Shown here in pieces: positions 15,256 to 64,000 of a stretch of 64,000 bases of DNA (position 1 is its first letter; every line of letters starts with the position of its first letter). The stretch is taken from NCBI GenBank assembly GCA_002104905.1, contig MCFE01000239.1, forward strand, positions 55,624 to 119,623, read 5' to 3'. The stretch comes from Basidiobolus meristosporus CBS 931.73. Its lineage: Eukaryota > Basidiobolomycota > Basidiobolomycetes > Basidiobolales > Basidiobolaceae. The notes beneath the pieces are model-generated. The model saw only the letters and a list, made by a program, of their open reading frames with translations, ran no database searches and was not told the DNA's origin. A program made the translations under genes and the position numbers.

Positions 15256-18101
15256 ATGTCAGAGAATCCTGAATTTAACATTATCGCTAATCTTGAAACG
15301 CCTGAGTCGTGTCTGGAGCTGCGTATCAGTTGCAAGTAAGAATACTTCTCATCTTTCTAGTGCTTCAAAACAAAAGGTAATCGAAGTGTTCAGAAATCTA
15401 GCAAAGATGGATATTTGTTTTCCATCTGACCCATTGGTTGTATGCCAGGTCTTCAAAGAAGGGGTTTGGCAGGAGTTTGGCCGGACAGAATTCATCAAGA
15501 ATGACTCAAACCCGAACTTTACCACCTCATTTAAACTTGAGTATCGCTTTTCAGATGCTTTACCTTTGAAGTAAGTCATCTAAAAACTGTTCTTTGGAGA
15601 GAATAGCTATTACATTAATACTGACTATCTGAAGGTTCCACGTTTATGATATAGATGATCCTACGCATTCCATTGAGAAAGCTGATTATATTGGCAGTCT
15701 TGAAACTACATTGTCGGAAATTGGTATCTAACTCTTGCAGCCTTGAGAATATAGAATATGGTTTCATTAATGGAATTTTAGTGAATGCTCCCAGCCATGT
15801 GTTGGAGAGACACTTGAAGAATTCTAAACTTTCAAACCCTGGAATAATTAGGGTGGTTGCTGAAGAAGTGGTGGATTACAAAGATATTCTCAAGTGAGTA
15901 GATTGGCAAAACCGGTTTTCATCAGTACATTTCTAATTTCGACTCCAATCTTTGCGAAAGCTTTCACCTGAGTGGAAGGGATTTGAAGAAACCGGTTTGT
16001 ATTGCAATCTTCGGTCCACTTGATCTGTGAGTTAGCTCACTAGTTATATCATGCTAGAGCTTCTTTTCTCGATGCAAATTCTTCTACCGAATCAGTCGTT
16101 TTCAAGATGGTACAGTGCTAAGCGAGCCATTGATGCTGGTTGATTTGACTTGTGTTGGAGGCTTACGATGTCCCATATATTTTAGATGGAAGCTACGTGC
16201 TGGTGCACCAGAGTGAGGTCCAGCACAAAAGCACCAACCCTGGATGGTCTCCGGCTTCAGGTGAGTGGTGGAGGGGGGGAGGAGGGGTGAAGGCAGAGCA
16301 GGGGGCGTATGAGTACTGGACCTGATTGCTGACACCCTCCACTTTACAGTTCCCGTTGTGAATATCTGCAATGGAGATTACGAGAGGCCATTGCTCATAG
16401 AGGTGATGGACTGGAGTAGATTTGGGAGTGAGTTTCATGGCACCAAGTGGCATATATATGTGTCGAACCTATTTCACTAACATGCACTCTAGATCATACA
16501 TTGATTGGCTACTGTAGCACGACTATCAGTGAATTATCTGGTAATGTCGGATCTGAACTACTACTAAGTAACTCAAACAATAAGAAAGGAGGAATTCGAG
16601 GAAAGATATTTGTCAGTGCGTGTAGAATTGAGAAGAGTGATACGTAAGAGCATCTTGAACAGTCTTTGAACATCTCAAAGTTCGTTTGTACTGAGCCGCT
16701 TTTACCAGTTTTCTCGACTATCTGCGCGCTGGTGCTGAGCTGAGTATGACTGTGGCCATTGACCTGTCCGAGTCTAACGGTATGTCCATCGAGGTATTTG
16801 CTCGACTTGCGAACGCATGCTAAGCCACTCTCCCTAACACGATGACAGGCAAATTCGCGGATCCCACCTCGCTACACTTCCAGTCAGGGACCCAGTACAA
16901 CTACTATCAAGACGCAATCCTGTCCATTGGTAATGCTCACGAAACAGTGGGACTTGTCGACAGACCACCGAAACTTACGAATCTATCACAGGCGGTATAT
17001 TGGAGCCTTACGACTCTGATCGCAAATTCCCTGTAAGTTCATCACACCGAGGCCTATGTTGGTTAGGATCATGCACCAATGGGACATCTACGAGTAGGTT
17101 TATGGATTTGGGGCTGGGCTGCCAGGCGGAGCCAATCCTCCCTTCTTTGCTCTAAATGGAAACATCACCCAGGTAAGCTTAGCTTCAGCTCTACCCTTGA
17201 TGACAAAGTACGCAGCCACACTCTGACGCTGCAGCATTAGCCTGAAGTGATAGGTGCCAGGGGAATATTCAACGCTTACAACAATGTCGTCGGGAATATT
17301 GTGCAGACTGAGCCAACGCTACTAGCGCCAGTAAGTGGCTCTCGCCTACATCTGAGGAGTATGCAAGTGACCGCAGCACTAACGAACGCCAAAGTTGATC
17401 AGCTCCGTCTGCGATAAGATTGAGAAAGGCCTTGCCGTCCCCTCAGTTAGTGGAGCACAGAACTACCACATCTTGGTTATCATTACTGATGTGAGTATCT
17501 GAATATGCTTGCTTGGAATCCTGTGGTCAGACTTACAGTGACAACATTCCACTCTAGGGACAAATCAACGATATGGAGGATACGGTGAAGGCAGTGATCC
17601 GAGGTTCTAAGCTCCCCTTGAGTATTGTGATTGTGGGGATAGGCAGCAATGATTTCGCCAACATGAGTATACTGGATGCTGATGAGAGCATCTTGGAGGT
17701 AAGTGGGCACTCAGGATATCCAGGTGGATGAGTGGTGCGAACGTGGTATTGACGATATTCATGATATTCTCATCGAAAAGGCCAATGGTGTTGAGGCAGA
17801 GAGGTAAGCGGAAATCCGGAATACTGGTGGAGGATGCGAACACTGATACAGCCTGGACTGTCAACAGAGATATAGTACAGTTTGTGCCGATGAATGAGTT
17901 TTGTGACGGAGATCTTACAAAGCTGACAAGCGAGGTAAGTATATTCCACGATGTATTGGTATTGCTAATTGCAAGAGTCATACTTGAGCACTCTAGGTTC
18001 TGCGTGAGGTGCCCACACAATATCTGCAGTATATGAAGAGTCGAAACATCAAGCCTATTCCGGTTATTGACCACAGAAGAACCAGTTGGAGACTATACTA
18101 A
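15256..18101 (+). CDS. Copine 1 (C2A-C2B-vWA protein)
   Basis: Eighteen exons, all with GT-AG introns and consistent phase, give 564 residues: 15256-15335, 15394-15570, 15635-15723, 15782-15893, 15961-16026, 16107-16138, 16186-16260, 16350-16427, 16493-16643, 16709-16779, 16849-16929, 16992-17032, 17098-17172, 17241-17330, 17395-17490, 17558-17698, 17800-17934, 17997-18101. Copines are cytosolic proteins that dock on phospholipid membranes with calcium through two C2 domains and bind partners through a vWA-like domain. C2A covers about residues 20-150 (CKNLAKMDICFPSDPLVV), C2B about 160-287 (FHLSGRDLKKP, LVHQSEVQHKSTNPGW, DHTLIGYCSTTISEL), and the linker is FLDYLRAGAEL. The copine domain starts at TVAIDLSESNG, with MIDAS residues in D305LSES309. 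Later landmarks are VYGFGAGLP, LVIITDGQINDMEDT, SIVIVGIGSNDFANM and RDIVQFVPMNEF. Several C2 aspartates are replaced, so calcium dependence is uncertain. The paralogue is at 23807. Confidence 0.9.
15859..18088 (+). repeat. Duplicated block, copy 1
   Basis: This 2.23 kb is nearly identical, introns included, to 24410-26640. Only scattered single-base differences and one extra G in a G run of an intron are visible, apart from a sharply diverged patch at about 16497-16610 inside exon 9. Sequence before this block (exons 1-4) is clearly diverged between the two genes, as is everything after the last shared exon. Confidence 0.9.
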
Positions 18102-23806: not shown

Positions 23807-26653
23807 ATGCTACAGAGCTCAGAGTATAATGTCATAGCCAACCTGGAAAAGCCAGATTCGTGCCTGGAGCTGCGTCTCGCTTGCAAGTAAAGTGCATTTC
23901 ACAATTGAGAATAGCTTGTCCAGCACGAGACGGCTAAATTCCATCTTCGAAAGAAATCTTGTCAAGTTGGATATATTCTCTCCCTCAGACCCCATGATAG
24001 TGTGTCTGTCATATACAAATGACAGATGGGAGGAATTTGGCCGTACTGAATACATCGAAAATGATGCAAACCCAAAGTTCTTGAAAACATTGAGGCTTGA
24101 GTATCGGTTTGCTGATGCTTTACCTCTAAGGTTTGCTACCATCTTGACTCTTTCTAGCGTTGATAATCGTAACACTCTCTCAATTTCAGGTTTCACGTTT
24201 ATGATATTGATGACCCCACTCATTCGTTAGAGAATGCTGATTCTATCGGCTATCTTGAAACTACGTTGTCGGAAATTGGTATGTGACCAGTATTGCTTAA
24301 TTTGTACAATCATTATATTGAAGTAACCCCAGTGAGTGCACGTGATATGGTTTTGGAGAAACAATTAGTCAACCCCAAGTATTCCGACCCTGGAGCAATC
24401 AGGATAGTGGCTGAAGAAGTGGTGGATTACAAAGATATTCTCAAGTGAGTAGATTGGCAAAACCGGTTTTCATCAGTACATTTCTAATTTCGACTCCAAT
24501 CTTTGCGAAAGCTTTCACCTGAGTGGAAGGGATTTGAAGAAACCGGTTTGTATTGCAATCTTCGGTCCACTTGATCTGTGAGTTAGCTCACTAGTTATAT
24601 CATGCTAGAGCTTCTTTTCTCGATGCAAATTCTTCTACCGAATCAGTCGTTTTCAAGATGGTACAGTGCTAAGCGAGCCATTGATGCTGGTTGATTTGAC
24701 TTGTGTTGGAGGCTTACGATGTCCCATATATTTTAGATGGAAGCTACGTGCTGGTGCACCAGAGTGAGGTCCAGCACAAAAGCACCAACCCTGGATGGTC
24801 TCCGGCTTCAGGTGAGTGGTGGAGGGGGGGGAGGAGGGGTGAAGGCAGAGCAGGGGGCATATGAGTACTGGACCTGATTGCTGACACCCTCCACTTTACA
24901 GTTCCCGTTGTGAATATCTGCAATGGAGATTACGAGAGGCCATTGCTCATAGAGGTGATGGACTGGAGTAGATTTGGGAGTGAGTTTCATGGCACCAAGT
25001 GGCATATATATGTGTCGAACCTATTTCACTAACATGCACTCTAGATCATACATTAATAGGACATTGTAGCACGACTATTAGTGAACTATTTGCCAAGATT
25101 GGATGCGAATTATCTCTTTCAAATAAAGAGAATGAAAAATCAGGAATTCGAGGAAAGGTATTTGTCAGTGCGTGTAGAATTGAGAAGAGTGATACGTAAG
25201 AGCATCTTGAACAGTCTTTGAACATCTCAAAGTTCGTTTGTACTGAGCCGCTTTGACCAGTTTTCTCGACTATCTGCGCGCTGGTGCTGAGCTGAGTATG
25301 ACTGTGGCTATTGACCTGTCCGAGTCCAACGGTATGTCCATCGAGGTATTTGCTCGACTTGTGAACGCATGCTAAGCCACTCTCCCTAACACGATGACAG
25401 GCAAATTCGCGGATCCCACCTCGCTACACTTCCAGTCAGGGACCCAGTACAACTACTATCAAGACGCAATCCTGTCCATTGGTAATGCTCACGAAACAGT
25501 GGGACTTGTCGACAGACCACCGAAACTTACAAATCTATCACAGGCGGTATATTGGAGCCTTATGACTCTGATCGCAAATTCCCTGTAAGTTCACCACACC
25601 GAGGCCTATGTTGGTTAGGATCATGCACTAATGGGTCATCTACGAGTAGGTTTATGGATTTGGGGCTGGGCTGCCAGGCGGAGCCAATCCTCCCTTCTTT
25701 GCTCTAAATGGAAACATCACCCAGGTAAGCTTAGCTTCAGCTCTACCCTTGATGACAAAGTACGCAGCCACACTCTGACGCTGCAGCATTAGCCTGAAGT
25801 GATAGGTGCCAGGGGAATATTCAACGCTTACAACAATGTCGTCGGGAATATTGTGCAGACTGAGCCAACGCTACTAGCGCCAGTAAGTGGCTCTCACCTA
25901 CATCTGAGGAGTATGCAAGTGACCGCAGCACTAACGAATGCCAAAGTTGATCAGCTCCGTCTGCGATAAGATTGAGAAAGGCCTTGCCGTCCCCTCAGTT
26001 AGTGGAGCACAGAACTACCACATCTTGGTTATCATTACTGATGTGAGTATCTGAATATGCTTGCTTGGAATCCTGTGGTCAGACTTATAGTGACAACATT
26101 CCACTCCAGGGACAAATCAACGATATGGAGGATACGGTGAAGGCAGTGATCCGGGGTTCTAAGCTCCCCTTGAGTATTGTGATTGTGGGGATAGGCAGCA
26201 ATGATTTCGCCAACATGAGTATACTGGATGCTGATGAGAGCATCTTGGAGGTAAGTGGGCACTCAGGATATCCAGGTGGATGAGTGGTGCGAACGTGGTA
26301 TTGACGATATTCATGATATTCTCATCGAAAAGGCCAATGGTGTTGAGGCAGAGAGGTAAGCGGAAATCCGGAATACTGGTGGAGGATGCGAACACTGATA
26401 CAGCCTGGACTGTCAACAGAGATATAGTACAGTTTGTGCCGATGAATGAGTTTTGTGACGGAGATCTTACAAAGCTGACAAGCGAGGTAAGTATATTCCA
26501 CGATGTATTGGTATTGCTAATTGCAAGAGTCATACTTGAGCACTTTAGGTTCTGCGTGAGGTGCCCACACAATATCTGCAGTATATGAAGAGTCGAAACA
26601 TCAAGCCTATTCCGGTTATTGACCACAGAAGAACCAGTTGGAAGCTTTATTAG
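23807..26653 (+). CDS. Copine 2 (C2A-C2B-vWA protein)
   Basis: Same 18-exon structure as the gene at 15256: exons 23807-23886, 23954-24130, 24190-24278, 24324-24444, 24512-24577, 24658-24689, 24737-24811, 24902-24979, 25045-25195, 25261-25331, 25401-25481, 25544-25584, 25650-25724, 25793-25882, 25947-26042, 26110-26250, 26352-26486, 26549-26653. The product is 567 residues. C2A begins LELRLACKNLVKLDIFSPSDP; C2B includes NHTLIGHCSTTISELFAKIG; the vWA part has DLSESNGKFADP and ITDGQINDMEDT. Exons 1-4 are clearly diverged from copine 1, exons 5-8 and 10-18 are almost identical, and exon 9 is diverged again. The last residues differ (KLY-stop here, RLY-stop there). Both copies keep intact frames and splice sites, so both are probably expressed. 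Neither shows stop codons or broken introns. Confidence 0.9.
24410..26640 (+). repeat. Duplicated block, copy 2
   Basis: Counterpart of 15859-18088 at an offset of 8551-8552 bp. The diverged island corresponds to about 25049-25162 in exon 9. Introns on both sides of the island match almost base for base. Confidence 0.9.
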
Positions 26654-27321
26654 CTTATTCAAGTGATCACAGCACCGATATTCCACTGTATATGATTATT
26701 CACGTCAAAGACAAGATAACGCAAGCTTATCCTCTTCTTAAGTGTGGTGGTCCTTACTATTAAGAACCATGAAAAACACTCTAGAATCTAGAAAGTGACT
26801 ATAACTTATTATGATTCTATATGTAATAAAACTCGAACCCAGATTGTCATCAAATGTTACATGTGCAGGGTAAAGAACCATTTAATTGTATTCCTTGTCT
26901 CGTAGACTTGGATGATTTGTTTGGCTGTTAGCCTCTGTGATGCATAAACACTGTGGAGAATACCATATTTCCTATTACCGCAGTGCATAGCTGGAAATTA
27001 ATGGTGACATTTTTATATCTAATAAATATAGCATAATGTAGAAGTAAATTTCAAGTTGCATTTACTGTAAAAATGGTCTGATAGGTGCATGATAGGAAAA
27101 AAAATAACCGGTGACTGTTTCAATGCTCATGGTTTTTTTACTAGACATTGAGTCAAATTAACCTCAGGTAAAATCTTCTCATGTGACCATTAGTAGAAAA
27201 AAAGATCATTCAACAGACGTATCCAAAATGGAATCAAATCCATTATACATATGTACTCCAAAAAGGTGGAACTTCGCGTTTCTCTAGTTTCATGTTGGGT
27301 TTTTAACAACTTTGTAACGCC
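26654..27321. other. Intergenic, AT-rich
   Basis: No coding frame, repeat or RNA gene was identified. The region separates two co-oriented genes and should include the copine 2 terminator and the MIP1 promoter. Confidence 0.6.
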
Positions 27322-56985: not shown

Positions 56986-57670
56986 TGTTGTAAAAAACTT
57001 GCAATTCCACCTAAATATTCACCTACCTTGATCACTTAGATCATTGCCTACAAATCTTAGTGAATACTGACCAAATTCCTTGTTGGGATTTACTTTGAGA
57101 ATTTTCTTGTTCTGGGTACCTGATATTTTGGTGAAAATACTCTAAGTTGTCCAAACTGCCTCAAGCTTTGCAAACATATTCTTGGGACCTTCCTGAGCTG
57201 ATTCTACATGTTTGTAATGCCAAGACCATGTAAATGAATAAGTACTACTTTTCCATTCATAAATCATTAAGTGAAAACCACATAATCTACTTGCACTCCC
57301 AATCACTTTCAATATCTCCAGAACTCTTACATCAGGTTATGAGTTGCAAGCTGTCACTCTCTGCAATGTCTACTACTGCTATTGCTGGAATTTTTCCCTC
57401 TGCTGAAAAGTTGGATGGATCTAACACCAAGTGTGGAAGGTGAAGATAAAGATACTGTAACAAGAAAGAGGCCTTTAGGATATTGTTATTGGAGAAGAGT
57501 GCTCTCCTAAAAACATAAGAGAGGGAGCCTTCAAGTACCAGAAGAAAAAACAAAGTGCCTTTAACTGTGTTTGCCCTAATGTTAGAGACAAATTGCAATT
57601 CAATGCTCTAGAGCAAACACCAACCAATCATGTTTAGCTGCTAAGAAAATGTATCTTGGATGCAAATGCC
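56986..57670 (+). mobile_element. Copia element cut off at the old chromosome end
   Basis: An LTR of 349 bp (56986-57334, TGTTGTAA to TTACATCA) is followed by the primer-binding site GGTTATGAG at 57335 and about 335 bp of internal sequence. That sequence is collinear with 19260-19630, including the CTGTCACTCTCTGCAATGTC and GCTGCTAAGAAAATGTATC blocks. The match stops at about 57657-57670, where TAGGGGAGGG and the first telomeric retroelement begin. No 3' part or second LTR is present to the right. A block of about 65 bp in the LTR (around 57098-57145) differs from other copies and looks like a local rearrangement. Confidence 0.85.
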
Positions 57671-57680
57671 TAGGGGAGGG

Positions 57681-58588
57681 AAAGTAACCAAGGTAGGTGA
57701 AATCTTTATTTGATTTCAGACAAGTCTAACTACAAATAAAGAAGCCAGCTGGGAATAGAAGATTCCCAAAGTAAACACCAAGTTGAATATGAATAAATCT
57801 AAGCTAAAGTTAAATCAGTATCCCAGAGTACACCAGAGCTCAGGTTCATGGGGAGTGAAGTAGATAAGCTTGAGAGATATAATAATCTTTCAGGAAGTGG
57901 GTAACAGCAGGTGAAGGGGAGTTTTTGATAAGTGAAGTGAATCTTGAGAGCAGAGATTCCTCTAATGAGAAGGTCTTGTAAACTGGAGAATCAGGAAACT
58001 CTTTAAAGGCATGGTCAGTAGGTTCCCAGTAAAACTGGTCAGAGACATTTTGAGAGAATTCTTTAGCAATACTTTTGTCAAGTACTACCTCCAGAGTGTG
58101 ATGGCTCATAAATCTCATGTTAACAATCTTGATAAGTTGTAACCTTGTTGCTTGAGATACATCCTATGCTCAGATATAGGAATAAACTCCACATTGGCAA
58201 AGTAGCAGACAACCCAGTCAGTAGCAGGAGGCAAATCAGAGGTGGCAGGAGACTTTCTTTTAGTCTTGGGAGGAGCAGCAGGATGGCTTGCGGAAGCAGG
58301 AACAGACTTTTTGACAGCTCCAGAGTAGGAAGAGTGAGCAGAAGCAGATGCCTTTTGTGGAGTCTTGTTGGCAGGAAGAGTTGGCACAGGGACAATAGAT
58401 TCTTGCAGATCAGAGAAGGCAGACAACAGCTTTTGAACTTGTTTCTTGAGTAGAGCATTTTCAGCTTCAACAAGTACAAGCCTTTCCTCCAGGAAAGAAA
58501 TATGAAGGGAATGGAGTGAAGGCATAAGAAATAAGAAGAAGAGGGTAGGAAAGGGTGGATGGGTAGGAAAATTAGCGGGGAGAAGAGA
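57681..58588 (-). mobile_element. Telomeric retroelement A (family 1, ORF1-only)
   Basis: Sense is the minus strand. The 3' end is at 57681, against TAGGGGAGGG (57671-57680). The 5' end is at about 58588, against GGGTTAGGGTAGGGGG. It carries one gene for an ORF1-like protein and no reverse transcriptase. The 3' untranslated part (57681-57845) includes the stem CTTTATTTG / CAAATAAAG and a hairpin whose right arm is mutated (GGTTA in place of GGTGA). It is the longest family 1 copy and may be close to full length, since its ATG is followed upstream by about 60 bp before telomeric repeats. Confidence 0.85.
57846..58525 (-). pseudogene. LINE ORF1-like protein, frameshifted
   Basis: ATG at 58525 (MPSLHSLHISFLEERLVLV). 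A coiled-coil heptad region follows (VEAENALLKKQVQKLLSAF), then a Lys/Ser/Pro/Ala-rich linker. The C-terminal domain starts DWVVCYFANVEFIPISEHRM and resembles the nucleic-acid-binding C-terminal region of ORF1 in zygomycete LINEs ('YFA-x(4)-IPISE-x(3)-L-x(2)-G'). One C is missing near 58131 compared with element C, where the frame runs on as YNLSKIVNMRF. The protein therefore breaks into an upstream frame ending at 58115 and a downstream frame 58118-57846. Confidence 0.75.
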
Positions 58589-58617
58589 AGGGTTAGGGTA
58601 GGGGGTAGGGGGGGGGA

Positions 58618-59910
58618 AACCACTGGTTGGTGTAATCTTTATTGTCAATCATTGTGAAAATAAAGAAGTCAGGGATTGATTCTGGAGTCTTGTAACATAT
58701 TTGTACTGACACTTTGGGCTAATATGTAGATAGGTTGCTATTTCTTGTAGTTCCTCTGCATTGAATAGAGTGTTGAGAGGGAGTGGTGGTAGCACTAGCA
58801 ATAATAACTTATGATCTATGTATTGTGATGTGCTTTTGCCAATTGGTGATATAAAGCAAAGAAATGGGGTTTGCTGATTTACATACTCTTGCCATAGTTG
58901 ATAAAGATACTTGCTATATGCTTCTTTGGGGTTTCTTCTCCCCTCTATTGCTTTGACAAATTGCTGGACTTTTGGGCACCCAATGATACTTGTCCAACAG
59001 GAGTTATTTTGAAGCATCTTGCGTGAAACCCATGCTTGTATCAACTCATTTGTTGATTTTTGGAGTTGAATATGTAGTCTTGTATGGAGGTACAAAATTC
59101 TAATTGAATACAGGAGTAGTCCAAAAGTTGCCAGAACTGTGTGGTGATACTGTGTTGGTGGGAGCCATGGTAATAAAGTATAAATGCTGTGAGAAACAAA
59201 CTTGTCCAGTTTTGTCAGGTATCTTGTTGGAATAGGCATTATTGCCAATCCAAACACCAGTACTGGGAGCACAAACTGCTTGAGTAACAAGTGACATTGG
59301 CTCAAAGATAAATCTGGTGGTGTAACAGAGACTAACTTGTGTAAAGCATGCCATGCAAGTGCTATTTGCCTCCACACATGTGCTTTTACATCCAGACCAG
59401 ATGCAGTAAATGGAAGCCCTAGATAGCTGACAGTTTCTGCTGGGTGCAGAGTTTGAGAGTTCAGCATGATACTGCATCCAACTGGCTTGGTTTTTGCCAT
59501 TGAGAGACTAAGATTGTTTTGTGTAAGGTAGCTGACAATCAGGTCAGAGTCTTTTTTCAAATTACTGGAAGAGATACAAATATCATCTGAGTATAGAGTT
59601 GTAAGTGCAGAGGCTTCCAAGGCAGGAAAGTTGTTCATAAAGATGGCAAATAGTAGAGGGCATAGTACAGATCCCTGCACTACCCCATTTGGAACATCAT
59701 AAGTGGTAGATTGCATATTTGGATGCAAAATGTAGGCCTTTGAGTCCTGATATAAAGCCATGATAAGAGCTGTAATTGAAGGTCCAGCAAAAGCTTCAAG
59801 TTTTCTCCAAAGTAGGTTACGGTCAACTGCATCAAATGCATGGGTAATATCCAAGAGTACTGCTGGAAATTTGTTACAGAGTGTGTGGTCATGGCTTAGC
59901 ATCACAGCCA
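58618..59910 (-). mobile_element. Telomeric LINE B (family 2), 5'-truncated
   Basis: The 3' end at 58618 abuts a degenerate telomeric run (58589-58617: GGGTTAGGGTAGGGGG then TAGGG and extra G). The 5' end at 59910 abuts TTAGGGGGGAGGG. The 3' untranslated region is only about 31 nt and carries the shared module in diverged form: CTTTATT / AATAAAG stem, then an ACCA-ACCAG-TGGT hairpin in place of TCACC / GGTGA. This is the only family 2 copy in the window. Confidence 0.88.
58649..59910 (-). CDS. LINE reverse transcriptase, C-terminal 420 residues
   Basis: An open frame that enters from the truncated 5' end. RT motifs in order: KFPAVLLDITHAFDAVDRNL (catalytic Asp of motif A), PNGVVQGSVLCPLLFAIFMN (motif B), TTLYSDDICISSS (motif C, catalytic Asp-Asp but YSDD instead of the common YADD or FADD), then TVSYLGLPFTASGL and a long C-terminal region (WVSRKMLQNNSCW). 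Endonuclease and the finger subdomain are lost by truncation. No stop interrupts the remaining frame, so the element was added recently or is under little decay. Confidence 0.88.
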
Positions 59911-59922
59911 TTAGGGGGGAGG

Positions 59923-60458
59923 GAAAGTCACCAAGGTAGGTGAAATCTTTATTTGATTTCAGACAAGTCTAACTACAAATAAAGAAGCCAGCTGGGAATA
60001 GAAGATTCCCAAAGTAAACACAAAGTTGAAAATAAATAAATCTAAGCTAAAGTTAAGGCAGTATCCCAGAGTACACTGGAGTTCAGGTTCATGGGGGAGT
60101 GAAGTAGATAAGCTTGAGAAATATAATAATCTTTTAAGAAGTGGGTAACAGCAGGAGAAGGGGAGTTTTTGATAAGTGAGGTGAATCTGGAGAGCAGAGA
60201 TTCCTCTAAGGAGAAGGTCTTGTAAACTGGAGAATCAGGAAACTCTTTAAAGGCATGGTCAGTAGGTTCCCAGAAAAACTGGTCAGAGACATTTTGAGAG
60301 AATTGTTTAGCAATACTTTTGTCAAGTACTACCTCTAGAGTGTGATGGTTGATAAATCTCATGTTAACAATCTTGGATAAATTATAACCTTGTTGCTTGA
60401 GATACATCCTATGCTCAGATATGGGAATGAACTCCACATTGGCAAAGTAGCAGACAGC
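59923..60458 (-). mobile_element. Telomeric retroelement C (family 1), 5'-truncated
   Basis: Matches the 3' 530 bp of element A, with a perfect TCACC-TACCTT-GGTGA hairpin. The 3' junction is TTAGGGGGGAGGG (59911-59922). The 5' truncation at 60458 falls inside ORF1 (codons for CYFANVEF) and meets TTAGGGTTAGGGGGG. The ORF1 C-terminal part is intact at 60042-60437 (131 codons from the first Met) and shows what element A lost by frameshift. Confidence 0.88.
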
Positions 60459-60473
60459 TTAGGGTTAGGGGGG

Positions 60474-61828
60474 AGACAGTCACCAACAGGTGAAATCTTT
60501 ATTTCAGCTGAAACAAAGAAGCCAGCGCTACTGTGGTAGCTTTGATACAAGAGTGTGTAGCTGAGGGGAATTTGTAGGTAAGTTAATAAGAAGTGATGAT
60601 AGTTCTTCAGTGCTAAACACACTGTTCAGTGGGAAGGGGGGTAGCAAGAGAGGTAAGAATGACTTGTGAACAACATTAATGAGGGGAATGTGATAAGGAT
60701 TGATATTCATCATAAAGGGAGTGTGCTGCTGCAGATATTGTTGCCAAAGGTCTGTCAAGTACTTCAGGTAGGCCAGCTTGGGTTTTTCTGACTGCAGAAT
60801 ATAGTGAGCAAACTTCTTGACTTCAGGATCTCCAAGTATAGTTCTCCTGCAGGAGTCAGGTGTAGTGTGGTGTGTTCTCTTCCAGGCCTTAATCAGTGGG
60901 TTGTTGCAGTTGTGAAGTCTGAGGTATAATCTGGTTCTAAGGTAGAGAAGTCTGATCTTATAGGGCATAAACCCAAAAGCACCAAGAATAGCATGTCTGT
61001 AGGGGCATTCAGGCAAATGAGGCACCAAGGAGGTAATGCACCATACTGCAAACTTGTCAAGCTTAGTGCAGTCTCTAGAAGTAAGAGAGAGAAGTGGTAA
61101 GCCAAATTCCAGGACAGGGAAGACAAACTGCTTGAGTAGAAGGAGGCAGCTGGGAGCTGAAGTGGTAGGAGGAGTAACAGCCAGTAGCTTGTGGAGTGCC
61201 TGTCTTGCCAGGATAATTCTCTTCTTCAGGTGTGCTCCAGAGTCTAGTCCAGTAGGAAGGAAAGGAAAGCCAAGATATGTAGCAGAAACCTGAGCAGGTA
61301 GAGTGGAGTTCTCCAAGTTGATGGGAGAGCCCAAAGGTACTGTCTTTGCAATGGAAAGCTGGAGATTATTCTTCTGCAGATACTGGTGGATGGTCTGGGA
61401 GTCTTGTTGCACATTGGAGGAGGAAGTTCTGATGTCATCAGCAAAGAGAGTAACCAGGCAGTCAGCTGAGAGTCTTGGGAAATCACTCAGGAAGATGGCA
61501 AACAGTATAGGACCAAGCACAGAGCCTTGAACCACTCCATTAGGAACTGAGAACACAGCTGATTGCTCACTTGGGTGCAGAATTCTTGCTTGTGGATCCA
61601 GAAACAGAGACCTGACAAGGAGGGTGAGAGAGATACTGGAGAAGCATTGCAACTTGGACCAAAGCAGATTTCTGTCAACTGAATCAAAGGCCTTAGTAAT
61701 ATCAAACAGAACAGAGGGATACTTGCACTGGAAAGAGTGATCTTGGCTAAGTATGACTGCATATTCCAAGGAGAGGCCAGGAACAAAGCCAAACTGTGCA
61801 GGATGAAACTTGAGGGAGTCAGAGTAGA
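60474..61828 (-). mobile_element. Telomeric LINE D (family 3), 5'-truncated
   Basis: The 3' end abuts TTAGGGTTAGGGGGG (60459-60473). The 5' end at 61828 abuts GGGTTAGGGGGGGG. The 3' untranslated part is 54 nt and contains the near-perfect inverted repeat CTTTGTTTCAG / CTGAAATAAAG, then TCACC-TGTT-GGTGA, then ACTGTCTCCCCCC. It is the longest RT-bearing copy. Confidence 0.9.
60528..61828 (-). CDS. LINE reverse transcriptase, C-terminal part (family 3)
   Basis: An open frame of about 433 residues from the truncation to TAA at 60528. Motifs: FGFVPGLSLEYAVILSQDHS, then PSVLFDITKAFDSVDRNLLW (motif A), NGVVQGSVLGPILFAIFLSD (motif B), LFADDIRTSSS (motif C, FADD), SATYLGFPFLPTGLDSG, and a C-terminal region shared with B (LLLKQFVFPVLEFGLPLLSL; LWQQYLQQHTPF). 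Any endonuclease and ORF1 would lie upstream and are absent. The few codons read across the junction are telomeric sequence and not part of the protein. Confidence 0.9.
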
Positions 61829-61916
61829 GGGTTAGGGGGGGGAAAGTCACCAAGTGGTGAAATCTTTATTTACTTATGACAAGTATCTAAAGAAGCCAAG
61901 TTAATCTGAAGTAATT

Positions 61917-62035
61917 CCTAGAAAGCTAGGTCTGAGAGATATCTTCCTGGTAAGCCAGGTCTGAGAGTTGAGAAGCTGAGTGGTACTATATTTCCTAGTT
62001 AGCTAGGTCCGAGAGAGGTTTCCTGGAAAGCCAGG
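61917..62035 (-). repeat. Four covarying mini-hairpins in SINE E
   Basis: CCTAGAAAGCTAGG (61917-61930), CCTGGTAAGCCAGG (61946-61959), CCTAGTTAGCTAGG (61994-62007) and CCTGGAAAGCCAGG (62022-62035), each followed by TCTGAGAG or a variant. The fourth stem pair is A-T in two units and G-C in two. The same four occur in SINE G at 62516-62634. Confidence 0.8.
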
Positions 62036-62293
62036 CCTGAGAAGTGAGAATCTGAATATATCTGAGCTAAGTTATCATGGTTTGCGGTAGCGGAATTGTG
62101 GCCAGAATGGCCAGTAGACTGGGGGAACTGAGATGAATTTCTGGGCGATCACTGGCCAAATTTACTAGGCAAATCTGGCCAATTAGCATTTCAAGGATTT
62201 CAGCCAATCAGAGCCTTTACTTTGCCCGATGGTTGATCAAGCCATCTCCCAATGAGCACACATCAATTTATTAATCAAATTTTGCTGGATCCA

Positions 62294-62347
62294 GGATTTG
62301 AACCCACATCCATGGGTATGGAAGGGTTAGGGATAACCACAAGGCTA
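62294..62347 (-). promoter_or_regulatory. RNA polymerase III A and B boxes of SINE E
   Basis: On the minus strand, TAGCCTTGTGG (62347-62337) matches the A box TRGCNNAGYNGG with one change and one missing base. GGTTCAAATCC (62304-62294) matches the B box GGTTCRANTCC. The 32-base spacing between them is that of a tRNA gene. The T-stem pairs poorly, so this is a tRNA-derived promoter rather than a working tRNA. Confidence 0.7.
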
Positions 62348-62380
62348 AGTGTTCTTGGTTAAGGGTTAGGGTTAGGGGGG

Positions 62381-62427
62381 AGACAGTCACCAACAGGTGA
62401 AATCTTTATTTCAGTTGAAACAAAGAA
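62381..62427 (-). mobile_element. Telomeric retroelement F: 47 bp family 3 stub
   Basis: Only the last 47 nt of family 3 are present (from the AAAGAAG base of the first stem to the AGACAGTCACC end), between TTAGGGTTAGGGGGG on the left and GGGTTAGGGGGAGG on the right. It is thus little more than the two-hairpin module and gives a lower bound on the sequence joined to the telomere. Confidence 0.88.
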
Positions 62428-62441
62428 GGGTTAGGGGGAGG

Positions 62442-62913
62442 AAAGTCACCAAGTGGTGAAATCTTTATTTACTTATGACAAGTATCTAAAGAAGCCAAGT
62501 TAATCTGAAGTAATTCCTAGAAAGCTAGGTCTGAGAGATATCTTCCTGGTAAGCCAGGTCTGAGAGTTGAGAAGCTGAGTGGTACTATATTTCCTAGTTA
62601 GCTAGGTCTGAGAGAGGTTTCCTGGAAAGCCAGGCCTGAGAAGTGAGAATCTGAGTATATCTGAGGTGAGTTGTACTGATTTGCGGTAGCTTGTTTGTGG
62701 CCAGAATGGCCAGTAGACTGGGGGAACTGAGGGGTATTTCTGGGCGATCACTGGCCAAATTTACTAGGCAAATTTGACCAATTAGCATTTCAAGGATTTC
62801 AGCCAATCAGAGCCTTTACTTTGCCCGATGGTTGATCAATTTATTGATCAAATTTTGTTGGATCCATGATTTGAACCCACAACCATGGGTATGGAAGGGT
62901 TAGGGATAACCAC
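62442..62913 (-). mobile_element. Telomeric SINE G (family 4), 5'-truncated in the A box
   Basis: Close copy of SINE E at an offset of 599 bp through the hairpin region, with a short internal deletion (about 25 bp) before the tRNA-like head. It is truncated at 62913 within the A-box region (AACCAC then TTAGGGG). The B box here is GGTTCAAATCA, one base from consensus. Confidence 0.87.
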
Positions 62914-62923
62914 TTAGGGGGGG

Positions 62924-63789
62924 AGACAGTCACCAACAGGTGAAATCTTTATTTCAGTTGAAACAAAGAAGCCAGCGCTACTGTTGTAGCTTTGATACAA
63001 GAGTGTGTAGCTGAGGGGAATTTGTAGGTAAGTTAATAAGAAGTGATGATAGTTCTTCAGTGCTCAAGACACTGTTCAGTGGGAAGGGGGGTAGCAAGAG
63101 AGGTAAGAATGACTTGTGAACAACATTAATGAGGGGAATGTGATAAGGATTGATATTCATCATAAAGGGAGTGTGCTGCTGCAGATATTGCTGCCAAAGG
63201 TCTGTCAAGTACTTCAGGTAGGCCAGCTTGGGTTTTTCTGACTGCAGAATATAGTGAGCAAACTTCTTGACTTCAGGATCTCCAAGTATAGTTCTCCAGC
63301 AGGAGTCAGGTGTAGTGTGGTGTGTTCTCTTCCAGGCCTTAATCAGTGGGTTGTTGCAGTTGTGAAGTCTGAGGTATAATCTGGTTCTAAGGTAGAGAAG
63401 TCTGATCTTATAGGGCATAAACCCAAAAGCACCAAGAATAGCATGTCTGTAGGGGCATTCAGGCAAATGAGGCACCAAGGAGGTAATGCACCATACTGCA
63501 AACTTGTCAAGCTTAGTGCAGTCTCTAGAAGTAAGAGAGAGAAGTGGTAAGCCAAATTCCAGGACAGGGAAGACAAACTGCTTGAGTAGAAGGAGGCAGC
63601 TGGGAGCTGAAGTTGTAGGAGGAGTAACAGCCAGTAGCTTGTGGAGTGCCTGTCTTGCCAGGATAATTCTCTTCTTCAGGTGTGCTCCAGAGTCTAGTCC
63701 AGTAGGAAGGAAAGGAAAGCCAAGATATGTAGCAGAAACCTGAGCAGGTAGAGTGGAGTTCTCCAAGTTGATGGAGAGCCCAAAGGTAC
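62924..63789 (-). mobile_element. Telomeric LINE H (family 3), outermost element
   Basis: Nearly identical to the 3' 866 bp of LINE D. The 3' end is against TTAGGGGGGG (62914-62923), and the truncated 5' end at about 63789 is directly capped by the telomere. A T shared between element and repeat (GGTAC-T-TAGGG) makes the exact join ambiguous by one base. Near identity to D points to a recent insertion. Confidence 0.92.
62978..63789 (-). pseudogene. LINE reverse transcriptase fragment (after the catalytic motif)
   Basis: Codes for the C-terminal 262 residues of the family 3 RT from MENSTLPAQVSATYLGFPF to the stop at 62978. It lacks motifs A-C and so cannot be active. One base is missing near 63770 relative to D (GGAGAGCCC in place of GGGAGAGCCC on the plus strand), which shifts the last few codons before the truncation. 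Confidence 0.85.
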
Positions 63790-64000
63790 TTAGGGTTAGG
63801 GTTAGGGTTAGGGTTAGGGTTAGGGTTAGGGTTAGGGTTAGGGTTAGGGTTAGGGTTAGGGTTAGGGTTAGGGTTAGGGTTAGGGTTAGGGTTAGGGTTA
63901 GTTAGGTTAGGGTTAGGGTTAGGGTTAGGGTTAGGGTTAGGGTTAGGGTTAGGGTTAGGGTTAGGGTTAGGGTTAGGGTTAGGGTTAGGGTTAGGTTAGG
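63790..64000 (+). repeat. Terminal telomere repeat array, TTAGGG
   Basis: About 35 tandem TTAGGG units running to the window end, G-rich strand 3' outward, as at a true right-hand chromosome end. Irregular units occur at about 63897-63909 (TTAG and TTAGG) and in the last dozen bases (TTAGG). These may be telomerase slips or assembly noise. Confidence 0.97.

What the first reader, a model, noticed from the sequence alone, without database searches (positions are those of the whole stretch)
57671..64000. Chromosome end built from a chain of eight telomere-joined retroelements
Seen: elements A-H (four families) lie head-to-tail, all on the minus strand, separated only by a partial repeat to about three TTAGGG repeats, and capped by a TTAGGG array. 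Known: Drosophila HeT-A/TART/TAHRE chains, Bombyx SART/TRAS, Magnaporthe MoTeR and rotifer Athena elements use telomeres. Inference: this fungus extends or repairs its ends by alternating TTAGGG addition and retroelement addition. RT LINEs, an ORF1-only family and a SINE mixed in one chain with the same 3' module is not an arrangement I know of as described.
Basis: partly seen in the sequence, partly recalled or inferred. Interest (0 to 1): 0.93.

Follow-up and report, generated by a model that had tools for sequence, protein, structure and literature searches.

The report
Chromosome ends built from stacked retroelements
In the soil and gut fungus Basidiobolus meristosporus, chromosome ends carry stacks of related jumping genes that look as if they were added tail-first onto nearly bare ends and then re-capped with ordinary telomere repeats, a separate relative of systems known from blast fungus, silkworm and fly.

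Summary
Window 57671-64000 is the end of contig C468 (119,623 bp) of Basidiobolus meristosporus: eight minus-strand elements of four families, split by about 0.5-2.5 TTAGGG units, capped by about 35. It is genome-wide: one 3' module pattern has 1441 forward and 129 reverse matches. Of 100 listed LINE-B modules, 37 lie on contigs of at least 160 kb; all 37 are within 18.3 kb of an end, 5' ends outward. Six families (three LINEs about 50% alike, an ORF1-only element, a SINE-like element, one unclassified) share a two-hairpin 3' module ending in a C-run and CCCTAA, without poly(A). Tracts below elements are short: 13 LINE-B-type junctions have three clean repeats against 636 exact modules. Truncation points share microhomology with TTAGGG (18 of 20), as telomerase healing predicts. 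TERT-domain sequence is present. The LINE has an AP-type endonuclease, unlike RLE-type MoTeR/FoTeR/Cnl1. Best reading: an independently evolved telomere-specific LINE with parasites that primes on short G-strand ends, alternating with telomerase. Mixed chains are known (MoTeR1/2), so this is a new variant. Activity and host benefit are inferred.

The parts
57671..58592 (-). Element 1, family D (ORF1-only). 3' module at 57674-57749; ORF1 from an ATG at about 58525, frame-broken near 58120 relative to element 3
   Evidence: ORF1 homology of family D to LINE-B ORF1 was tested on element 3
58606..59910 (-). Element 2, LINE family C, 5'-truncated; RT ORF 58649-59911; 3' module 58611-58672 (second hairpin differs)
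   Evidence: RVT_1 E=4.9e-17; 50% identical to family B RT; nine other copies at 84-93% in the listed rows
59917..60458 (-). Element 3, family D, 5'-truncated; ORF1 C-terminal part 60045-60455; 3' module 59917-59992
   Evidence: 48/140 identities to LINE-B ORF1, E=2e-15 for the single comparison
60459..60470 (.). Two TTAGGG units between elements 3 and 4
60471..61829 (-). Element 4, LINE family B, 5'-truncated inside RT; RT ORF 60528-61853
   Evidence: RVT_1 E=1.2e-18; 5' junction has 2-nt microhomology with TTAGGG
61838..62365 (-). Element 5, family A SINE-like; A-box-like and B-box-like motifs near its 5' (right) end; 3' module 61837-61899
   Evidence: taken as reference: 8 of 12 rows (itself included) reach its 5' end; fold of tail; tRNA origin by motif only (negative)
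62366..62377 (.). Two TTAGGG units between elements 5 and 6
62378..62428 (-). Element 6, LINE family B reduced to its last about 50 nt (3' module only)
   Evidence: alignment to LINE-B stops at reference base 68
62437..62913 (-). Element 7, family A, 5'-truncated near the A-box-like motif, with an internal deletion relative to element 5
62920..63789 (-). Element 8 (outermost), LINE family B, 5'-truncated; ORF 62978-63766; 3' module 62917-62975
   Evidence: 1-nt microhomology at the cap junction
63790..64000 (+). Telomere cap, about 35 TTAGGG units, end of contig C468
56571..56625 (-). Decayed module-like stretch inward of the chain, perhaps an older element end
   Evidence: seen by eye; not scored by any tool

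Best explanation
A telomere-specific non-LTR retrotransposon lineage (LINE B, C, F) with an AP-type endonuclease (seen in family B), plus an ORF1-only element (D), a SINE-like element (A) and an unclassified family (E), all carrying one kind of 3' RNA tail: two hairpins, then a C-run that runs into CCCUAA. SHOWN: chain order, polarity, terminal location of the copies tested, shared module, short tracts, microhomology at truncation points, caps, presence of TERT-domain sequence. INFERRED: (1) the RT recognises the two-hairpin tail of any family; (2) the C-run/CCCUAA 3' end pairs with the 3' end of the G strand (TTAGGG-3') of a chromosome end that has only about one or two repeats left, and that end primes first-strand synthesis, which gives the observed 3'-proximal/5'-distal polarity and the lack of poly(A); (3) synthesis usually stops early (5' truncation) or the new end later erodes; (4) telomerase re-primes on a few matching nucleotides and rebuilds the cap; (5) when a cap is lost again the cycle repeats. 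The endonuclease domain looks to be under purifying selection with the catalytic Glu changed to Asp, so it probably still trims or nicks the telomeric end rather than being dispensable. ORF2 is probably made by read-through of a UGA-CUA stop after ORF1.
For: Polarity and place: 37 of 37 modules on 23 contigs of 160 kb or more, out of 100 listed of 636; all within 18.3 kb of an end and 5'-outward; C291 has one at each end on opposite strands; 63 of 67 listed LINE-B ORF2 rows on the minus strand; 40 of 40 listed ORF1 matches in one orientation; of 20 contigs given lengths, 19 fit terminal position (within 8.8 kb) and polarity. Microhomology: 18 of 20, mean 2.10 nt against 0.75 for random joins, 0 of 20,000 resamples; 15 of 16 when only breaks followed by clear TTAGGG sequence are kept. 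Shared tail: five of six tails fold with z -2.7 to -4.5; 95% of cells paired against 39-49% when slid. Length and truncation: SINE-like copies reach the same 5' end in 8 of 12 rows, LINE-B copies break at many points. TERT. EN: (dN/dS about 0.19 in EN from 7 copies, 0.23 in RT). TGA-CTA: 4 of 4 copies that reach ORF1; 31 of 67 rows have a frame of exactly 922 aa.
Against: No transposition event, RNA 3' end or raw read was seen. The module stems barely vary, so there is no covariation support (0 pairs changed on both sides) and family C folds poorly (z -1.27). 13 of 85 compared modules lack an exact TTAGGG within 14 nt. One LINE-B copy is internal with odd polarity (C726). Tandem 120-bp units in C2 and a cap junction shared by C22 and C25 show that recombination or copying between ends also builds chains. 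Longer interstitial tracts exist (C95, seven units; C225). Five of twelve ends had no module in the last 2.8 kb. In four of the 20 microhomology junctions the break runs straight into the next tail or degenerate sequence, not clear TTAGGG. The dN/dS counts use closely related copies against one reference and are not independent; one copy has a stop in RT.
Confidence: 0.65

Rival explanations
1. TRAS/SART-like target-site insertion: the endonuclease nicks inside an ordinary telomeric array, elements insert there, and later terminal truncation plus telomerase healing creates the truncated ends and short tracts.
For: AP-type endonuclease apparently kept by selection; SART1 of silkworm targets telomeric repeats (PMC7265360 abstract) and TRAS/SART arrays end silkworm chromosomes (PMC10088271 passages).
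Against: Insertion at random places in a cap of about 33 units should leave long proximal tracts; only 13 LINE-B-type junctions have three clean repeats, and the outermost modules found also sit on about 1-2 units in 11 of 11 capped ends with a module. SART1Bm needs at least three repeats and a poly(A) tail (PMC7265360 abstract); no poly(A) is seen here.
Confidence: 0.2
2. Mostly recombination: a few old telomeric insertions are copied between ends by break-induced replication and tandem duplication, with telomerase healing; retrotransposition is now rare.
For: Tandem 120-bp units in C2, shared cap junction in C22 and C25; MoTeR arrays rearrange this way (PMC7367193 passages).
Against: Mostly distinct truncation points among the 21 LINE-B copies kept (a few pairs nearly coincide); 65 of the 67 best-scoring LINE-B ORF2 matches have no stop over the matched 663 aa (a list biased to intact copies) and listed pairs are 97.4-99.9% alike.
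Confidence: 0.13
3. Assembly artefact: repeats collapsed or chimeric joins at contig tips.
For: Array starts are almost only forward (345 forward, 6 reverse), which points to an assembler quirk; raw reads were not available.
Against: Chains differ between ends; hundreds of junctions obey the same polarity and phase rules; reversed-pattern controls give 0 matches (13 and 1 for the pure telomere patterns).
Confidence: 0.02

Closest known systems
MoTeR1/MoTeR2 of Magnaporthe (Pyricularia) oryzae
   Same: Fungal telomeric non-LTR elements, heterogeneous head-to-tail arrays, 5' ends outward, (TTAGGG)n spacers, RT-less partner with shared 3' end, 5' truncations healed at in-frame telomere seeds (PMC7367193: introduction and passages)
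   Different: MoTeR1 RT is similar to SLACS/CRE1 with a putative restriction-like endonuclease; here an AP-type endonuclease with LINE-type RT. Six families seen here including a SINE-like one; MoTeR spacers reach more than 20 units, here mostly 1-2
FoTeR (Fusarium oxysporum) and Cnl1 (named there as kin)
   Same: Fungal telomere-associated non-LTR elements with truncated copies; telomeric motifs at both ends (PMC12857005, abstract and sections 18, 19 read)
   Different: CRE-type RT and REL domain (section 18); 3' telomeric tracts typically 3-7 units (section 19) against mostly 1-2 here
TRAS/SART of Bombyx mori
   Same: LINEs that live in telomeric repeats, several lineages, telomeric repeats present (PMC10088271 passages); AP-type endonuclease (recalled)
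   Different: SART1 needs three or more repeats and a long poly(A) tail (PMC7265360 abstract); TRAS and SART insert in opposite orientations (PMC10088271 passages); here one polarity, no poly(A), very short tracts, shared hairpin tail
HeT-A/TART/TAHRE of Drosophila
   Same: Chains of several LINE families at chromosome ends (start of abstract of PMC5537684 seen in a listing); 3'-end-first attachment and a gag-only member, HeT-A, compared with family D here (recalled)
   Different: Drosophila lacks telomerase; here TERT-domain sequence and TTAGGG caps exist. HeT-A joins by oligo(A) (recalled); here by C-run/CCCTAA
Athena Penelope-like elements
   Same: Retroelements associated with telomeres of rotifers (start of abstract of PMC3846280 seen in a listing); short telomeric repeats between copies and fungal cases recalled
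   Different: Penelope-type RT without endonuclease; here LINE-type RT with AP-type endonuclease
Stringent LINE/SINE pairs with a shared 3' tail
   Same: SINE and LINE share a structured 3' tail thought to be recognised by the LINE RT (recalled)
   Different: Here the shared tail also ends in telomere complement and sits at chromosome ends

Membership tests
CRE clade (MoTeR/FoTeR/Cnl1) | Restriction-like endonuclease C-terminal to RT, no AP endonuclease | tested here: not met
   LINE-B ORF2 of 922 aa: PF14529/PF03372-like N-terminal domain, RVT_1, no further Pfam family at E up to 1; a divergent RLE that Pfam misses is not excluded
CRE clade (MoTeR/FoTeR/Cnl1) | RT clusters with CRE/SLACS | not tested
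   No CRE reference sequences were fetched; best solved-structure hits are LINE-1 ORF2p (E=6.6e-13); 8gh6, an R2-type RT by my recall, E=0.11
Works like MoTeR arrays | Head-to-tail, 5' outward, mixed autonomous/non-autonomous elements, (TTAGGG)n spacers | tested here: met
TRAS/SART | AP-type endonuclease + RT | tested here: met
   NxN, YxPP, GDxN, D-W, SDH motifs; Pfam scores below curated cut-offs; catalytic Glu aligns with Asp. Seen in family B only; families C and F not covered that far
TRAS/SART | Insertion into arrays of three or more repeats, poly(A) tail at 3' junction | tested here: not met
   13 junctions with three clean repeats against 636 modules; junction strings carry no A-run
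TRAS/SART | R1-clade phylogeny | not tested
   No R1 references held; proteins beyond the five closest are 17-23% identical over whole alignments
HeT-A/TART/TAHRE | 3' end towards the chromosome body, chains of several families, gag-only member | tested here: met
HeT-A/TART/TAHRE | Replaces telomerase | tested here: not met
   TTAGGG caps and Telomerase_RBD matches on C880; telomerase activity itself not testable
Athena/Penelope | Penelope-type RT, no AP endonuclease | tested here: not met
SINE (family A) | tRNA/7SL/5S-derived pol III head | tested here: inconclusive
   A- and B-box-like motifs by eye; no ARAGORN or Rfam hit; head fold z -0.46
SINE (family A) | 3' tail shared with a partner LINE | tested here: met
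Stop-codon read-through gag-pol | ORF2 in frame behind a leaky stop context | tested here: inconclusive
   Sequence met: TGA-CTA in 4 of 4 copies, same frame; leakiness of UGA-CUA is recalled, not measured

The most novel reading that the evidence does not exclude
A dual telomere system: in a fungus that keeps telomerase, chromosome ends that have eroded to one or two repeats are routinely rescued by adding retroelements whose RNAs, from at least six families including a SINE-like and an ORF1-only one, share a telomerase-RNA-like tail (structured element plus CCCUAA template-like end), after which telomerase re-caps; the LINE machinery would be a domesticated or mutualistic back-up that evolved independently of MoTeR, TRAS/SART and HeT-A.
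Probability: 0.3. Interest if true: 0.92.

Novelty: new variant of a known kind. Interest (0 to 1): 0.75.

Why it matters
I found no description of this system in the papers listed (capped lists, open-licence papers only). It sits in a deep fungal lineage and uses an AP-endonuclease LINE where the fungal telomeric LINEs I could read about (MoTeR1, FoTeR, Cnl1) carry restriction-like enzymes. More than 1500 exact modules in one genome give hundreds of readable junctions, so the open question whether telomeric LINEs insert into arrays or attach to eroded ends becomes testable by counting. It also shows several LINE families, an ORF1-only element and a SINE-like element sharing one telomere-directed tail, which bears on how telomerase and retroelement reverse transcription are related.

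Tried and rejected
Rejected: Penelope/Athena origin (RT is LINE-type); CRE-type enzyme; loss of the endonuclease (my first reading, note, was that the catalytic Glu was lost; the alignment shows Glu to Asp, and one search suggests selection on the domain, so I dropped it); telomerase loss; chance TTAGGG (controls). Led nowhere: Rfam and tRNA scans; the 15 contig starts sampled carry no exact module (one with two mismatches in C467), perhaps because this assembly loses left-hand tips; the 5' end of full-length LINE-B remains open (one search shows two TTAGGG and then unknown sequence before a cap); the EN region of families C and F was not reached; structure prediction never ran. No covariation support for the hairpins.


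Full report
IDENTITY. The window is the last 64 kb of contig C468 (119,623 bp) of an 89.0-Mb, 1311-contig assembly. Three of the four closest database proteins to the LINE-B RT are named Basidiobolus meristosporus CBS 931.73, so I take the host to be that fungus or a near-identical genome.

WHAT IS THERE. Searches show eight minus-strand elements head to tail between 57671 and 63789, then a TTAGGG cap to the contig end. Families in order from inside: D, C, D, B, A, B, A, B. B and C carry LINE-type reverse transcriptase (RVT_1) and are 50% identical. Family D shows only ORF1 sequence in the copies read; its C-terminal part is 34% identical to LINE-B ORF1. Family A is about 530 bp with A-box- and B-box-like motifs (my reading; two searches found no tRNA). 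Further families with the same tail occur elsewhere: F, a third LINE 49% identical to B, and E (L038), whose coding content I did not resolve.

THE SHARED 3' MODULE. The tails read, in the sense strand, CTTCTTT...AATAAAGATT.CACC...then GGTGA (family C departs here), a C-run, then CCCTAA. Folded alone as RNA, six of six family tails give two hairpins; z-scores are -3.87 (B), -2.71 (A), -4.45 (D), -3.74 (F), -3.42 (E) and only -1.27 (C). On nine tails 95.2% of cells pair, against 39-49% when the partners are slid, but no pair changes on both sides, so covariation neither supports nor refutes it. The junction strings show no poly(A).

GENOME-WIDE. The pattern CACCAAN{2,6}GGTGAAATCTTTATTT has 1441 forward and 129 reverse matches, reversed-pattern controls 0 and 0. 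My hand tally of the 100 places listed by loop sequence: B 50, A 28, D 12, F 6, E 3, one other. The 29-base LINE-B module has 594 forward and 42 reverse matches. Of its 100 listed places, 37 lie on 23 contigs of 160 kb or more whose lengths I had; all 37 are within 18.3 kb of an end and all point 5'-outward, log10 P about -27 for random placement. The other 63 are on contigs left out of that test, mostly short ones. C291 carries one at its left end on the minus strand and one at its right end on the plus strand. TTAGGG lies within 14 nt of the module in 72 of the 85 places compared. Of 67 listed LINE-B ORF2 matches (the best-scoring of 1517 first-look candidates), 63 are on the minus strand. 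For 20 contigs with matches I took lengths: 19 fit the terminal position, within 8.8 kb, and the polarity; C726 does not. All 40 listed matches to an ORF1 piece have one orientation.

TRACT LENGTHS. Caps are 175-232 bp with 27-38 units counted in 16 of 17 contig ends examined (29-40 when counted over the last 260 bp); the seventeenth (C95) ends in a SINE-like element beyond an interstitial tract of seven units. A further end, C1019, has about 40 units. Between elements the tract is mostly one or two units. Genome-wide, three clean units within 8 nt of a LINE-B-type tail occur 12 + 1 times, against 636 exact modules (the two patterns are not nested exactly, so this is a rough ratio of 2%). In the 11 capped ends with a module in hand the outermost module found also sits on about one to two units. 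Random insertion into a cap of about 33 units would rarely give this. Longer interstitial arrays do exist (C225, C381). Five of the 12 ends fetched had no module within about 2.8 kb: C400 is a long LINE-B, C58 ends in sequence that looks like LTR gag (by eye), and C114, C208 and C352 are not resolved.

5' JUNCTIONS. In one search, LINE-B matches in 25 sequences were compared with one existing copy: of 34 rows, 7 lacked the 3' end and 6 ran off the locus, leaving 21 (counts). One (L048) does not run into telomeric sequence and was dropped. In the other 20, 18 share at least 1 nt, 13 at least 2 nt and 8 at least 3 nt with TTAGGG at the break, mean 2.10 nt; for random breakpoints and phases the mean is 0.75 and P(at least 1) is 0.48; 0 of 20,000 resamples reached the observed mean. 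With only the 16 breaks followed by clear TTAGGG sequence it is 15 of 16, mean 2.13. This resembles the in-frame telomere seeds of truncated MoTeRs (17 of 23; PMC7367193 passage) and is what telomerase healing predicts. SINE-like copies reach one 5' end in 8 of 12 rows, the reference included; six of these continue AGGG.

THE ENZYME. LINE-B has ORF1 with an N-terminal zinc-ribbon-like and coiled-coil region (weak Pfam scores), then TGA-CTA, then a 922-aa ORF2 frame in the same reading frame without an ATG ahead of its first motifs. TGA-CTA is present in 4 of 4 loci that cover it; 31 of 67 rows have a frame of exactly 922 aa. UGA-CUA as a leaky stop is recalled, not tested. ORF2 begins with an AP-endonuclease-like domain (PF14529 E=3.6e-4, PF03372 E=0.017, both under the curated cut-off). 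Motifs NxN, YxPP, GDxN, VDW and SDH are kept; the catalytic Glu of CLTET (role recalled) aligns with Asp in CLIDV in L043, P0121 and P0122. Compared with L044, dN/dS is 0.19 in EN (7 copies cover it), 0.53 in the linker, 0.23 in RT and 0.29 in the C-terminal part, so EN seems to be needed. Listed copies are 97.4-99.9% identical over 1.9-4.1 kb, which suggests recent activity.

TELOMERASE. Two Telomerase_RBD matches above the cut-off lie on C880 (E 1.6e-8 and 9.7e-7; one holds a TAG, perhaps in an intron). So the retroelements do not obviously replace telomerase.

MECHANISM. Polarity, C-run/CCCTAA at the 3' end and absence of poly(A) fit priming by the G-strand 3' end. The short tracts fit attachment to nearly bare ends. 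The microhomology and uniform caps fit telomerase re-capping. Recombination contributes (C2 tandem units, shared C22/C25 cap junction). The role of EN at a free end is unknown; trimming of the end is my guess.

COMPARISON. MoTeR1/2 arrays are the nearest in architecture, but MoTeR, FoTeR and Cnl1 are placed with CRE-type RLE elements (PMC12857005 section 18). TRAS/SART share the AP endonuclease (recalled) but SART1 needs three or more repeats and poly(A) (PMC7265360 abstract). HeT-A/TART share polarity and the gag-only partner (recalled) but not telomerase. I found no paper on telomeric retroelements in Basidiobolus: one search returned three papers holding both words, seen only in the listing; the papers listed (25 of 190; 4 of 6; 15 of 111; 10 of 37; 12 of 257; 10 of 63) show none by title or abstract start. 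Most subscription papers are not covered.

VERDICT. New variant of a known kind.

Noticed in passing
whole assembly: Telomere array starts are 345 forward but 6 reverse: caps are almost only at right-hand contig tips, probably an assembler habit of losing left-hand tips. By my estimate there are roughly 240 capped contigs, more than I would expect for one chromosome set; many are short (10-20 kb), perhaps alternative versions of the same ends.
   Followed up: partly
L044 4264-4266 (minus strand): LINE-B ORF1 and ORF2 are in one frame separated by TGA-CTA, a known leaky-stop context (recalled), an unusual gag-pol arrangement for a LINE.
   Followed up: partly
C2:259990-260258 (L013 4983-5240): Three LINE-B tails about 120 bp apart, two of them truncated at nearly the same place: looks like tandem amplification at an end.
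   Followed up: no
L034 (C58 end) and window about 57340-57670: LTR-retrotransposon gag-like fragments (by eye) sit at or next to ends; in C58 the TTAGGG cap is joined directly to such sequence, so telomerase may also heal non-LINE breaks.
   Followed up: no
C726:57230-59218 (+): LINE-B ORF2 copy about 10 kb from the right-hand tip of a 69,561-bp contig with polarity opposite to the rule.
   Followed up: partly
L033 about 880-925 (C45): A short TTAGGG tract followed by only a few bases of a family A tail and then another TTAGGG: an element cut back to almost nothing.
   Followed up: no
window 17607-18074 and 26159-26686 (-): Two near-identical ORFs about 8.5 kb apart, a duplicated unit, nature unknown.
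   Followed up: no
L096 (C1019:40890-41314): 5' of LINE-B ORF1 the sequence holds two TTAGGG units and then about 140 bp of unknown sequence before a cap of about 40 units; whether this is the LINE 5' UTR or another element is open.
   Followed up: partly
SINE-like element head, window about 62320-62345: The SINE-like head itself contains CCCTAACCC, so part of its head mimics telomere sequence.
   Followed up: no
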